A stretch of DNA of 64,000 nt, from the NCBI RefSeq assembly GCF_024679245.1, contig NC_090178.1, positions 9,463,202 through 9,527,201 of the forward strand, written 5' to 3'. The notes beneath the pieces were generated by a model that saw nothing but the letters and a program-made list of their open reading frames with translations, did no database searches and was not told where the DNA came from. Every line of letters starts with the position of its first letter. Position 1 is the first letter of the stretch. Origin of the DNA: Pseudorasbora parva (Eukaryota; Chordata; Actinopteri; Cypriniformes; Gobionidae). Below, piece after piece: positions 47,001 through 62,000 of the stretch. The position numbers and the translations under genes were made by a program.

Positions 47001-50000
47001 ACAAAAGAGAAGTAAGATGCAAAATACAAATACAAGGGCCAACAAAACATAAACATGCCAGTACGATGTGTGCGTGTGTATGTATGTGTGTGTGTGTGTG
47101 TGTGTGTGTGTGTGTGTGTGTGTGTGTGTGTGTGTGTGTGTGTGTGTGTGTGTGTGTGTGTGTTTGTGCGTGTAACTGGTGTGGGAGTGTTAATGTATGA
47201 ATAAAGAATCATGTAGGGAAGTACAACAGACATAACCAAAAAATATATGTGTATAAATAAGGTGACAACAGCAATAGTAATAGCAATATTAATAATAATA
47301 ACAATAATAATGATAAATCCAATTAATTAGAAATGACAAATAGTATTAATAGTATTATCAGTAGTAGTAATGACAAACATATATACAAATATACTCTTTT
47401 CATCCGGAACCGTCTTGACACGTTTTTGTCACATATTTCACAGAGCATCATCCAATTATTACTTTGGAAATAAATGTGACTATTTTTTTATTTTTAATCC
47501 ACTTCTGTGTTTACTTTTAGCAGTTTATTTAAATAAATCAATTGACGGGTACACACATACCCGCTATGCACAGTATTATATTATATTATATTATATTATA
47601 TTATATTATATTATATTATATTATATTATATTATATTATATATATTATATTATATTATATTATATTATATTATATTATATTATATTATATTATATTATAT
47701 TATATTAATTATATTATATTATATTATATTATATTATATTAATTATATTATATTATATTATATTATATTATATTATATTATATTATATTATATTATATTA
47801 TATTATATTATATTATATTATATTATATTATAGGTGTCTTCACCACTTATCAACCTTATACTGGTGTAAAAATTCTCATCTGAGAAGAGAAGGGAAAATC
47901 TAAACAGACTGGAAACACACACATCCACACACCCTTTTTAACATTCCAGTCGTGCTCTTTGTGAGAGTGGGAAACCTCTCTCTCTCTCTCTCTCTCTCTC
48001 TCTCTCTCTCTCTCTCTCTCTCTCTCTCTCTCTCATTGATTTTGGCTCCGTCTCCGGGCCGGTTGTAAAGTGCTGATGCAGTGCTTTCCGCCAGGAGGAG
48101 ATGATTAACATTCAGAGGAATTATAGATCGCTGCTTTCCCTTCATGCGCTCTGTGCAGCTGTAGTTGTTTTGTGGCCCCTGTGTTTAGCAGCCGTTCATT
48201 TATTGCAGCATGATGCACTGGTGCCGATGCAGTCTCTGCGCTGGAGCACACAGAGGTCACATTCAGAATGAGGTTGTGCAGATGTGTGTGTGTTCAGAAC
48301 AGACAGACCAAACTAATGTTGCTTGTACTGTAATAGATACAGTAGCTCTGTTGCTCCCTGGTTAGACAACATTATATGTGATGCAAAGATTATTAAAAAA
48401 GGTAATTAATACTTTTTAATCCTGCTTTTATTCAGCAAGGATGCATCAAACTGACCGAAAGGGACAGTAAAAACATTTATAATGTTATAGATTTATATAT
48501 AGTGCTATTTGAACTACAACTGATAGTTATAAGAAATGTTTTTTGAGCAGCAAATCATCATATTAGAATGATTTCTGAAGGATTATGTGACACTGAAGAC
48601 TGGAGTAATGACATCACAGTAATGTTACATTTAAAAAATGTAAATCAAATATAAACAACATTTATTTCAGAAAGAACTTTCTTAAGCTGCACAACTATTT
48701 AAGTAAAAATGTTAAAAACAAAATTGTATTTTTAATATTATTATTATTATTAGGGGCCAAGCCCCCGAAGGGGCTGTAGCCCCTATTGGAATTGTTAGTA
48801 TACTTTATTATTATTATTATTAGGGGCCAAGCCCCGAAGGGCTGTAGCCCCTATTGTAATTGTTAGTTTTCTTATTAGGGGCCAAGCCCTGAAAGGGCTG
48901 TAGCCCCTATTGCAATCGTTAGTTTACTTTATTATTAGGGGCCAAGCCCCCGAAGGGGCTGTAGCCCCTATTGGAATTGTTAGTATACTTTATTATTAGG
49001 GGCCAAGCCCCCGAAGGGGCTGTAGCCCCTATTGGAATTGTTAGTATACTTTATTATTATTATTATTATTCTTTTTCTTCCCACTGGGTTCCTATGGCAG
49101 CCCTATGAACTGTAAGTAGGAAAATGATGAAATTTGGCACACTTGTAGTGATGCTTATGAAAAGTAATTGGTCCAAATTTGGTGTCTCTACAACCAACTC
49201 TATAGCGCCACCACCAGTCCAAAAATTCAACATTTAAACATTTATAACTTTTGATCCCTTTGATACAGAGAAATGAAACTTAGTACACCTGATTCCTCTC
49301 CTCATGCGGATCACATTCATTTCCTTACATTAAGGCTCCGCCCATTACAGTAACAGCCATTTTGAAAAGTACAGTATTCAGTTTTTTTGCTACTCCTCCT
49401 TCAAAGTTTTTCCGATTTTGTTCAAATTTGAAATAAATAATCTTTGGACTGAGCCGCATAGACATGACTAAACAGATTTTTTTTATTCTTCTTTGTTCAA
49501 AAGTTATGATGTCATGAACTTAATGCGGTCGACCCAAATTTTGTTCTGAGGCTGTATCTCGGCCAAACTTTGATCAATCAAAACGAAAATTGGTACGCTT
49601 CATCAGACCCATGATCTGAGGGTACATGCCAAAGTTGGGAACAGCGCCACCTAGGGGTCATGAGATATGAAAAAAGGCTATTTTTGCCCATAACTTCTGA
49701 ACACTTTGTCAGAAAATCATAATTTTGGTATCTATGGATTCCCCGTGTCATGCCGAATCTGTGGATACCGGATATGTTAGCATCGAATGAACCACGTGAC
49801 CGCCATTTTGAATTTTGTCATAAATTGCTATATCTTTTGAAATATTTGATATATCTGCACAAAATTTGGTATGGGTGACCGTCAGCATGTCCCGAACGTA
49901 CCTGAGAAGTTTCAGAACAGCGCCACCTAGTGTTCCCGAGATATAGGAATTTTTGCTAAAACGTTTATAACTTTTGAACACTTTGTCTAAATTTAATATA

Positions 50001-59000: not shown

Positions 59001-62000
59001 GACATGACTAAACCAATTTTTTTTATTCTTCTTTGTTCAAAAGTTATGATGTCATAAACTCAATGAGGTTGACCCAAATTTGGTTCTGAGGCTGTATCTC
59101 GGCCAAACTTTGATCAATCAAAACGAAAATTGGTACGCTTCAGCAGACCCATGATCTGAGGGTACATGCCAAAGTTGGGGACAGCGCCACCTAGGGGTCA
59201 TAAGATATGAAAAAAGGCTATTTTTGCCTATAACTTCTGACCGCTTTGTCAGAAAATCATATAATTGGTATCTATGGATTCCCCGTGACATGCCAAATCC
59301 GGTGATTTCGGATATGTTAGGATCGAATGAACCACGTGACCGCCATTTTGAATTTTGTCATAAATTGCTATATCTTTTGAAATATTTGACATATCTGCAC
59401 AAAGTTTGGTATGCGTGACCGTCAGCATGTCCCAAACGTACCTGAGAAGTTTCAGAATAGCGCCACCTAGTGTTCCAGAGATATAGGAATTTTTGTTAAA
59501 ACGTTTATAACTTTTGAAAACATTGTCCAAATTTGGTGTAATTTATGTCATTTTGTTCCCTGGCTTATGCAGATTGCGACGATATATCATTTGTCATTTT
59601 CCAAAAAGGTTATTGTCCGCAATATTGAAACAAGTGAAAAACAGTTTTTTTGCTACTCCTCTTTCAAATTTTGTCCAATTTTGTCCAAAATTGGCTGAGA
59701 TGATCGTTGGACTGAGCCGCACAGAAATGACTGAACGGATTTTTGATATTCGCTACCGTTCCTGAGATATTTGTCACTGAAGTTGACCCATCCTGTGTTT
59801 GTGTTTTTATGCTAGTTAGCTTAGCATGCCAGTTGGTTATTTGCAAAATGTGCTTCTGTTCAATACGTTGAGTCATTCTGAGATTGATCTAAACAGAACT
59901 TTTTAAACATTAAATGATGTCCATTTATTTGAAAAAAATCTTCATTTTGAGTCGACTCTCATTAGAACTATGGAACTTCAGCAGGTGTTTGAACACAAGC
60001 CCGGCCGGTGGCGCAACGAGATGAGCGATGGACCCAGCGCCCGGAGGTTATGGGTTCGAGTCCCGTGGGGGGCGGCTTTTTAAAGGTCGCTCTGCATTCG
60101 GCGAAAGCCCCTTCTGGGGCTTGGCCCCGTACAACTGCTTGCAGTTCTTGTTATCATTAGTATTATTATTATTATTATTATTATTATTATTTTCCTATTT
60201 AATATCCAAAATGTATTATAAACCATTAAAATTTTTTTAAAGTATTTTTAATCATTACTTTTCAATATTTAATGAATTTTAATTGTAATTTTTAATTGTA
60301 AATATATTTATGTTTTAATGAGCTTTTGACATACCATTTCAGCAGTGACTTATTAATGTCAACTTTAGTTGATGATACTTATTTAGTATGTTTATTAGAG
60401 TATTAGCAACATGAGAAAACTATTAGAATCAATTATAAGTTCCTTATGAAAAGTAAAATCATTCATCATTCCTTCCTCAACCTTCTCTTCGGTACATTGT
60501 TCTACCTTCAGCCTGTTTTAATGTGCGATACAGTCAGTTGAACATCAATCTTTTTTAAACATGCGAGGCACTGACCTTAGCATGGCCACACTGAATGCTG
60601 GGTAATGAAATGCCATCAGGCTGAATTGGCTGACGGCTCTTGCATGAGGAAAAAGTCATTATTCTGGTTTTGGTTGTAAAAGCCGTTTTCTGATTTAATG
60701 GGAGTTAAGTTCAATCATGGCTAAAACATACTGACTGAAAGCAACTTTTACAGCAATTTAAGAATCAGTTATTACGGAAACACACAACAGCAAACAATAT
60801 AGTGTCTAAAACAGTGTTAAAGGGGTGGTTCCGTGTTTTTTTTTTTCTAGGCTTGGTTGTGTTTATGGGGCGCAGTATAACATGTCTTAATACTTTTTTT
60901 AAATGCCTTATTTTTCTTATATTATACCATTATTCCACACCGCTGTCCATGAAGCCCATCCCTCTGAAAAACGCAATGGTCTTAGATTGGTTAGATGGCC
61001 AAATGTAGTTTCATGCAGTGGCGTAGGCAGAATTGTATTTTTGGTCGGGCCTGGGCACTTTCACGCGAGGGGGGTGGGGGGGGTAGCTACAAAATAGTAT
61101 CTGTCCAAATACAAAACATGAACAGTGGTTACAACAAACGTTAGACACTTTATTTCCACTTTTCAAATATGTTCTTCATTTTTATTGAAAATAAACACAT
61201 TTCCGATCTGATATATGATGAGAAAAGAAAGTACATCGAGTTCGGCAAAAGGCGGATTCGATCCGCAGGATGAATTGCGTCAGAACATTGTGCCGCACAC
61301 CTTACCCCTTCACTATCATGACTGGTCGAAAATAATTGCGTGTTCCCGGCTTTATAGAATGAACATGCGCTTGCAATTGAAATCTCAATGTTACCTGCGT
61401 CCTGATGGATTGGTTATCTCCTGCGTTAATGCAATATTTTTTTTTCTTTCCTTTTTATAAAATTTTGCATTGCTGCTGTTTCTCTATCACACAACTGCAA
61501 ACTGTAAGCTAAGTGAATAGGTAAACACACTTCATGAAGTCAGAAGTGCGAGCCATGTCACACATAAGACAGCCTAACACAGCTGTCAATCAAATTCATC
61601 AAGCATTATGCAAAAACCATAGACTGTAAAAACACATTTTATTTATTTCAGTATTTGAGATGTTATAATAAGTTTGTAATTACGTTAAAATAATTTAAAG
61701 AACTGTTATTTAACAAATATTATTATATTTGTATAATAAACTGGAGGGGCCTATCATCATAGTGGGCGGGCCTGTGCCCGTCATGCCCGCCTGCTGGCTA
61801 CGCCCCTGGTTTCATATTATTTTTATTGGCTGAAGTGCCAATCACAGGTTGCCTGGAAACACCACGCCCCTTACCATTACGGGCAGAAGTCACATCTGCG
61901 CTGACTAGCAAGGGTTTGTGATGTCACCAACCCAGGAAGAAGCTCATTGTAGTCCAAACCGGCCGTTTTTGTAGGCAATGAACTGCCATAACTTTAAAAG

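What the first reader, a model, noticed from the sequence alone, without database searches (positions are those of the whole stretch)
48752..60151. Bracket-like self-nested array of an unrecognised hairpin-ended element
Eight 'heads' (AGGGGCCAAGCCCC + GGGGCTGTAGCCCC) and seven 'tails' (GGGGCTTGGCCCC + gctgctwgcagc) occur in the order HHHHH TT H T HH TTTT, where each T closes one body. Depth never becomes negative. Each body without its own head starts in the TTA run just after a previous tail. This is what results if new copies insert into the (TTA)n that follows the head of an older copy. Ends are paired GC hairpins rather than ordinary TIRs, and the body has no transposase. I know of no named family with this plan.
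Basis: partly seen in the sequence, partly recalled or inferred. Interest (0 to 1): 0.8.

Follow-up and report, generated by a model that had tools for sequence, protein, structure and literature searches.

The report
Self-nesting Helentron copies in fish DNA
A family of rolling-circle jumping genes in a carp-like fish carries, just inside its own front end, the short TTA repeat it likes to land in, so later copies insert into earlier ones and leave arrays whose front and back ends pair up like nested brackets.

Summary
The array is real: eight heads and seven tails in the stated order. It is not an unrecognised kind of element: the ends have the published plan of non-autonomous Helentrons (HINE/DINE-1-like), with T-rich insertion and no target-site duplication beyond an ambiguous TT. 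At C15 a b-type head and b-type tail enclose about 26.3 kb with an open 2,685-codon OTU/Rep/helicase frame, the likely autonomous relative.

Nesting is supported. Head and tail subfamilies agree in 29 of 29 adjacent units. Of six isolated multi-copy clusters outside the window, five (2, 3, 2, 3, 4 copies) read in mirrored order; L015 (one head, two tails) does not fit. The window fits fully if body 2 is a fusion of two copies, as its sequence suggests; that explains eight heads against seven tails. A-type copies of one cluster are no more alike than copies of different clusters (medians 94.5% and 94.5%). (TTA)n offers TT on one strand only, which explains the constant orientation.

Large arrays are blurred, so recombination or concatemers also act. 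A new variant of a known kind.

The parts
48752..48805 (+). Head H1, subfamily A1; outermost head, pairs with body/tail 7
48822..48871 (+). Head H2, subfamily b; pairs with body/tail 6
48877..48930 (+). Head H3, subfamily c2; pairs with the c2-type 3' part of body 2 and tail 2
48937..48990 (+). Head H4, subfamily A1; pairs with the A-type first ~450 bp of body 2; its own tail is missing (fusion, inferred)
48998..49051 (+). Head H5, subfamily A1; own body 1
49052..50576 (+). TTA run and body 1 (A type)
   Evidence: nearest of 24 A-type copies 99.1%, on C15
50577..50612 (+). Tail T1 (A type): inverted repeat GGGGCTTGGCCCC, palindrome, CTTG end
50613..52507 (+). TTA run and body 2, mosaic: A type for ~450 bp, then 97-100% identical to a c2 copy (L022)
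52508..52553 (+). Tail T2 (c2 type)
52569..52623 (+). Head H6 (c1)
52624..54371 (+). TTA run and body 3 (c1)
54372..54412 (+). Tail T3 (c1)
54425..54474 (+). Head H7 (b); pairs with body/tail 5
54483..54537 (+). Head H8 (c1); own body 4
54538..56286 (+). TTA run and body 4 (c1), 98.1% to the copy with body 3
56287..56324 (+). Tail T4 (c1)
56321..57115 (+). Body 5 (b type by its tail), lacking its 5' part
57116..57152 (+). Tail T5 (b type)
57153..58557 (+). TTA run and body 6 (b type), shorter than A bodies by about 190 bp near 57638
58558..58594 (+). Tail T6 (b type)
58595..60115 (+). TTA run and body 7 (A type), outermost body
   Evidence: nearest of 24 A-type copies 99.7%, on C15
60116..60151 (+). 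Tail T7 (A type), outermost tail; TTA-rich host DNA follows

Best explanation
The units are non-autonomous Helentron (HINE-like) copies of at least five subfamilies (A1, A2, b, c1, c2). They move by rolling-circle transposition with the enzyme of Helentrons that have the same kind of ends, and insert at T-rich sites between Ts. Each copy carries a (TTA)n tract directly behind its 5' end. That tract offers a TT every three bases on one strand only, so it is a landing pad of fixed orientation for later copies. Each insertion splits the older copy into head + TTA and TTA + body + tail and brings a fresh head and pad, so arrays grow as nested brackets. Later deletions between neighbouring bodies, and probably some recombination or concatemer formation, blur the pattern. 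Shown: anatomy, subfamily linkage, mirrored order in isolated nests, TTA junctions, paralogous empty sites for one nest, a Helentron-type frame between a b head and a b tail. Inferred: that this protein moves the short copies, and the rolling-circle step.
For: Ends: palindromic inverted repeat, nested second repeat, 3' palindrome; three head sequences fold as one long hairpin, z -3.6 to -4.1. Five single copies (L012, L041, L043, L045, L046) with defined ends and T-rich flanks. Empty sites: 49 of 53 rows span the joined flanks of nest L018; in the one locus aligned (L051) nothing is duplicated beyond an ambiguous TT. Linkage: adjacent head/tail 29 of 29; adjacent head/body start 29 of 29 typed, 2 untyped set aside; in two classes on C1-C4, 38 of 39. 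Isolated nests L011, L017, L018, L019, L021: 14 of 14 last-in-first-out, 6 of 14 first-in-first-out; with five classes the mirrored order is 1 of 216 head orders, and 9 of 9 outer pairs agree, log10 P -6.1 if classes were independent. Mosaic body 2. A-type copies: 20 same-cluster pairs median 94.5%, 256 between-cluster pairs median 94.5%. Helentron-type frame between a b head and a b tail, with a weak endonuclease match at its end. PF14214: 57 matches in this genome, over no cut-off in the 14 control genomes.
Against: Strict bracket matching over all stretches used, cut array interiors included: 14 of 21 non-adjacent head/tail pairs agree (within-locus shuffle p 0.16, global shuffle p 0.0035); 16 of 23 for head/body starts. 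In the window itself strict matching on tails gives 1 of 4; the fusion reading was made after seeing this. A typed non-crossing test over seven stretches is not significant (p 0.31; window and L021 alone p 0.044) and C15 scores below its shuffles. Exact lists on C1-C4, two classes: 23 of 33 non-adjacent pairs, p 0.042. With innermost heads held fixed, order alone has little power (1 in 3). L015 has one head and two tails with host DNA on both sides; L016 and C2b have more tails than heads but are cut. H1, H4 and H5 are identical although bodies 1 and 7 differ by 8%. The Helentron frame is antisense to head-to-tail order, and the C15 unit is only 89-93% identical to the short copies. No such end was found in the 17 kb C15:9677000-9693999 around the frame, so the b ends lie 7-11 kb outside it, nor in one 21-kb stretch with two Helentron frames on C53.
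Confidence: 0.8

Rival explanations
1. Tandem duplication by unequal crossing-over or slippage between (TTA)n tracts: crossover between the tract behind a tail and the tract behind a head gives headless bodies, crossover across a head gives head repeats.
For: H1, H4 and H5 are identical over about 55 bp; head arrays look like a 61-bp tandem repeat; L015 has one head, two tails.
Against: Predicts neighbours more alike than distant copies: not seen for A-type copies, medians 94.5 and 94.5. Predicts no equality of head and body numbers or classes: equality seen in five of six isolated clusters.
Confidence: 0.1
2. Rolling-circle concatemers or composite copies: missed termination or joined-end circles give tandem copies; transposition from an outer head to the first tail gives several heads with one tail, as proposed for FoHelis (PMC5148889).
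For: 8 of 16 tail-head junctions have the joined-end look CTATATTTAGGGG, 6 of these 8 within one subfamily; at L013 the last three heads are followed by one body and tail.
Against: Does not predict that head order mirrors body order across subfamilies.
Confidence: 0.25
3. PIF/Harbinger-type MITE with TTA target duplication.
For: TTA flanks and GC-rich inverted repeats.
Against: The inverted repeat is 22-24 nt inside the 3' end; no TTA duplication at the aligned empty site; the protein between matching ends is Rep/helicase.
Confidence: 0.02
4. The C15 Helentron is an unrelated Helentron that inserted into a b-type copy, so the true partner is still unknown.
For: Identity of the parts next to the ends is only 89-93%; none of the other Helentrons was shown to have these ends.
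Against: The unit has a longer run of body-like repeats than the short copies, and at C15 and at C8 an array-strand frame of one type (27% identical) lies next to family 3' sequence.
Confidence: 0.2

Closest known systems
HINE / DINE-1-like elements (non-autonomous Helentrons), Thomas, Vadnagara and Pritham 2014, PMC4067079 (abstract, passages and section 6 read)
   Same: Palindromic inverted repeat close to the 5' end, inverted copy before the 3' end, 3' palindrome, internal microsatellite, a short inverted repeat whose 5' arm lies in the 5' repeat (as in DINE-1), T-rich insertion without target modification.
   Different: 3' repeat 22-24 nt from the end rather than 38-60 (mite families); identity to the putative partner about 90%, not over 95%; Rep frame antisense; copies nest in the element's own TTA tract.
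FoHeli (Helitron2-like) of Fusarium oxysporum, PMC5148889 (passages and section 16 read)
   Same: Asymmetric terminal inverted repeats with hairpins; self-insertion; several 5' ends with one 3' end; ORFs of FoHeli4 and FoHeli5 in the opposite orientation.
   Different: There one nested case is reported; here nests recur, with mirrored subfamily order. The protein here has a weak endonuclease match at its end (Helentron-like).
Helitron tandem arrays with multiple 5' ends (Xiong et al. 2016, known here only through the review PMC12628747, passages read)
   Same: Repeated 5' ends.
   Different: Those are described as truncated copies, many with a single 3' end; in the isolated nests here each head has its tail.

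Membership tests
Helentron-derived HINE | Palindromic inverted repeat at the 5' end, inverted copy inside the 3' end | tested here: met
Helentron-derived HINE | Palindrome near the 3' end | tested here: met
   CTGCTWGCAG exact in 7 of 7 tails of the window; as a fold, only 1 of 3 tails tested beats shuffles
Helentron-derived HINE | Insertion in TT / T-rich DNA without target-site duplication | tested here: met
   Five single copies, and empty sites for one nest, one locus aligned; an ambiguous TT remains
Helentron-derived HINE | Autonomous partner with Rep/helicase/endonuclease and the same ends | tested here: inconclusive
   One locus (C15): head b and tail b around OTU, DUF6570, Helitron_like_N, PIF1; Exo_endo_phos match below its cut-off; C8 only partly read
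Helentron-derived HINE | RPA-like second protein in the partner | tested here: inconclusive
   292-aa frame near the tail; no Pfam hit, profile hits to SSB chains at E 0.11-0.14, model pLDDT 30
Helentron-derived HINE | Over 95% identity to the partner (reported for Culex families; descriptive, not defining) | tested here: not met
   88.8-92.9%
Canonical Helitron | 5' TC, 3' CTRR, insertion between A and T | tested here: not met
   Ends TTAGGGG and CTTG or TATATT
Helitron2 | Same type of ends but Rep/helicase without endonuclease | tested here: inconclusive
   Endonuclease match is below the Pfam cut-off
PIF/Harbinger MITE | TIRs at both termini with a TWA duplication (recalled) | tested here: not met

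The most novel reading that the evidence does not exclude
The TTA tract is a kept feature of the element: a portable, strand-oriented landing pad that sends later copies into earlier ones, sparing the host and building multi-headed nests, so that head order records the order of arrival of subfamilies at a site.
Probability: 0.3. Interest if true: 0.6.

Novelty: new variant of a known kind. Interest (0 to 1): 0.45.

Why it matters
If right, each nest is a readable record of arrival order (outer is older), giving relative dates for transposon subfamilies without a molecular clock, and a clear case of self-targeting through a microsatellite that a transposon brings along. It also supplies a candidate partner for an abundant fish repeat.

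Tried and rejected
Rfam at gathering score: no match in the window; at E up to 5 in 48700-60250, seven matches, all below their gathering scores (best CrcZ, 30 bits against 95, on the head array), none a tRNA; ARAGORN finds none either, so the tRNA-like box motifs I saw by eye in the bodies are not supported. Head and body patterns in viral contigs: 0. Sequence strings in papers: 0. Inverted-repeat hunt for other ends of the C15 frame: only AT-rich matches. C53 stretch: no such head or tail. Structure of the RPA-like protein: model unusable, so not searched. PIF/Harbinger reading rejected on ends and empty site. Literature searches; they list papers on self-insertion and tandem arrays; I saw no mirrored nests in listings or passages; this covers open-licence PMC papers only. 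Repbase and Dfam were not available. Rows dropped: L007, L008, L014 and L049 were left out of the bracket counts (in one search only L007, L008 and L014); they show no heads. One search used 74 of the 100 listed heads (26 on C5 left out because the tail list stops at C4) and the 100 listed tails, of 367 and 437. One search used only A-type copies with 1.4-1.6 kb between body-start motif and tail. Of six sites fetched as possible single copies four were single; L042 and L044 have several heads.
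Full report
OBSERVATION. The 61-bp periodicity of the head array is also seen by Tandem Repeats Finder. The exact head and tail patterns occur 367 and 437 times in the 1.229-Gb genome in which the window lies (C7:9463202-9527201), the reversed controls 0 times.

ANATOMY. A copy reads 5' TTA | GGGGCCAAGCCCC (palindromic) | GAA | GGGGC TGTA GCCCC | about 20 nt | (TTA)n | body of about 1.4-1.9 kb | GGGGCTTGGCCCC | 6-7 nt | CTGCTWGCAG | short T-rich end. The tail repeat is the reverse complement of the head repeat. 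The GCCCC-GAA-GGGGC arm starts inside the 5' repeat, as described for DINE-1. Three head sequences folded as single strands give one long hairpin (z -3.6 to -4.1); of three tails, one has z -2.2 and two are no better than shuffles.

KNOWN PLAN. PMC4067079 describes mite HINEs with palindromic repeats 2-4 nt from the 5' end, an inverted copy 38-60 nt from the 3' end, a 3' palindrome, microsatellites or tandem repeats in some copies, and T-rich insertion without target modification. PMC5148889 describes asymmetric terminal inverted repeats with hairpins, self-insertion, and several 5' ends with one 3' end. Five single copies here have T-rich flanks and common ends. The nest L018 sits in an abundant repeat; its joined flanks match uninterrupted sites, 49 of 53 rows spanning the joint (some repeat copies give two rows; 40 of 2,861 candidates were scored), and in the one locus aligned nothing is duplicated beyond an ambiguous TT.

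PROTEIN PARTNER. PF14214 matches 57 places in this genome, many in open frames of about 2,290-2,790 codons. On C15, in array orientation, head b at about 9698567 is followed by a body with b-type start, diverged body repeats down to about 9694979, 559-bp tandem repeats, the region of an open 2,685-codon frame on the other strand (9679156-9687211), a 292-aa frame on the array strand, and b-type 3' sequence with a b tail at 9672268, about 26.3 kb in all. Head and tail are of the pair b-b that short copies also show. The 2,581 aa scanned have OTU, DUF6570, Helitron_like_N and PIF1; the last 103 aa match Exo_endo_phos below its cut-off. The 292-aa frame has no Pfam match; a profile of six relatives has only SSB chains as weak PDB hits (E 0.11-0.14), and its model is unusable. 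At C8 a frame 27% identical to it lies next to a c1-type 3' end; that unit was not read in full and no head was assigned to it. A C53 stretch with two Helentron frames shows no such ends. The partner is therefore likely but not proven.

NESTING. In 29 of 29 adjacent head-body-tail units head and tail classes agree, and in 29 of 29 typed adjacent units head and body-start classes agree, two untyped starts set aside. Outside the window six multi-copy clusters have host DNA on both sides of the part read (judged by eye). Five read: L011 A1 b | b A1; L017 b b A1 | A1 b b; L018 A1 A1 | A1 A1; L019 A1 A1 c1 | c1 A1 A1; L021 A2 A2 b A1 | A1 b A2 A2. The sixth, L015, has one head and two bodies with tails and does not fit. 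I picked out the five after seeing the data. In them last-in-first-out fits 14 of 14, first-in-first-out 6 of 14. The mirrored order is 1 of 216 head orders; holding the innermost heads fixed leaves only 1 of 3; but 9 of 9 outer pairs agree, log10 P -6.1 if classes were drawn independently.

THE WINDOW. Strict bracket matching on tails gives 1 of 4 non-adjacent pairs. Body 2, however, is A type for about 450 bp and then 97-100% identical to a c2 copy, and H3 is the one c2 head. A deletion that fused the body of H4 to the body of H3 removes one tail and one body start. With that single event every part is placed: H1-B7, H2-B6, H3-T2, H4-start of B2, H5-B1, H6-B3, H7-B5/T5, H8-B4. In the typed non-crossing test the window pairs 7 of 7 tails, which 4 of 30 head orders reach. 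The fusion reading was made after seeing the data.

WEAKER TESTS. Over all stretches used, cut ones included, 14 of 21 (tails) and 16 of 23 (body starts) non-adjacent pairs agree. The non-crossing test over seven stretches gives p 0.31, window and L021 alone p 0.044, and C15 falls below its shuffles. Exact lists on C1-C4 (74 heads, 100 tails, 19 clusters) give 38 of 39 adjacent and 23 of 33 non-adjacent agreements in two classes, p 0.042 for the latter. The exact head pattern misses CTCTTG heads, for example one of the two of L018, and parts of these lists overlap the loci above. The mirrored order is thus clear in isolated nests and blurred in large arrays.

NOT TANDEM DUPLICATION. Among 24 A-type copies of full length, 20 same-cluster pairs have median identity 94.5% and 256 between-cluster pairs 94.5%. 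Bodies 1 and 7 of the window are 92.2% identical to each other but 99.1% and 99.7% identical to copies on C15. H1, H4 and H5 being identical fits either common active sources or head duplication.

MECHANISM. (TTA)n carries TT on one strand only, so a TT-targeting element can enter it in one orientation. Of 37 head-head junctions 33 are uninterrupted TTA runs, 3 have one odd base and 1 has only TA. Each insertion adds a new head and a new pad. This accounts for one orientation, headless bodies behind tails, and mirrored classes. There are also 16 tail-head junctions; 8 of them have the form CTATATTTAGGGG, 6 of these within one subfamily; they may stem from insertion at the tail end or from concatemers.

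VERDICT. A new variant of a known kind: non-autonomous Helentron-like elements that nest in their own TTA tract. I saw no description of mirrored nests in the open-licence papers searched (listings, and passages of three papers).

Noticed in passing
window 16389-18742: 42-bp minisatellite, 56 copies, with extreme G over C skew on the + strand.
   Followed up: no
window 33723-35297: 121-bp tandem repeat, 13 copies at 99% matches, within a stretch of 51-54% GC at 30-36 kb in otherwise AT-rich DNA.
   Followed up: no
window 47574-47832: 52-copy TATTA microsatellite about 1 kb before the array.
   Followed up: no
C15:9638348-9683607: Two copies, 35,181 bp apart, of the RPA-like frame (both 100%) and of the PF14214 match: a recent segmental duplication.
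   Followed up: partly
L009/L010 (C15) versus window: Window bodies 1 and 7 have their closest relatives among 24 copies, 99.1% and 99.7%, side by side on C15.
   Followed up: no
C15, C8, C2 tail-head junctions: 8 of 16 tail-head junctions read CTATATTTAGGGG, joining tail and head directly, 6 of the 8 within one subfamily, as joined-end circles would.
   Followed up: partly
bodies, e.g. window 58600-60090: About 110 bp of the body recur elsewhere in the body at roughly 80-90%, an old internal duplication.
   Followed up: no
C10, C12, C53, C54, C56: Clusters of Helentron frames with equal PF14214 scores, mostly 2,290-2,550 codons.
   Followed up: partly
C15:9694000-9712000 and C8:8316000-8360000: Two of the Helentron frames found lie inside or beside arrays of this family, both on the strand opposite to the array.
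   Followed up: partly
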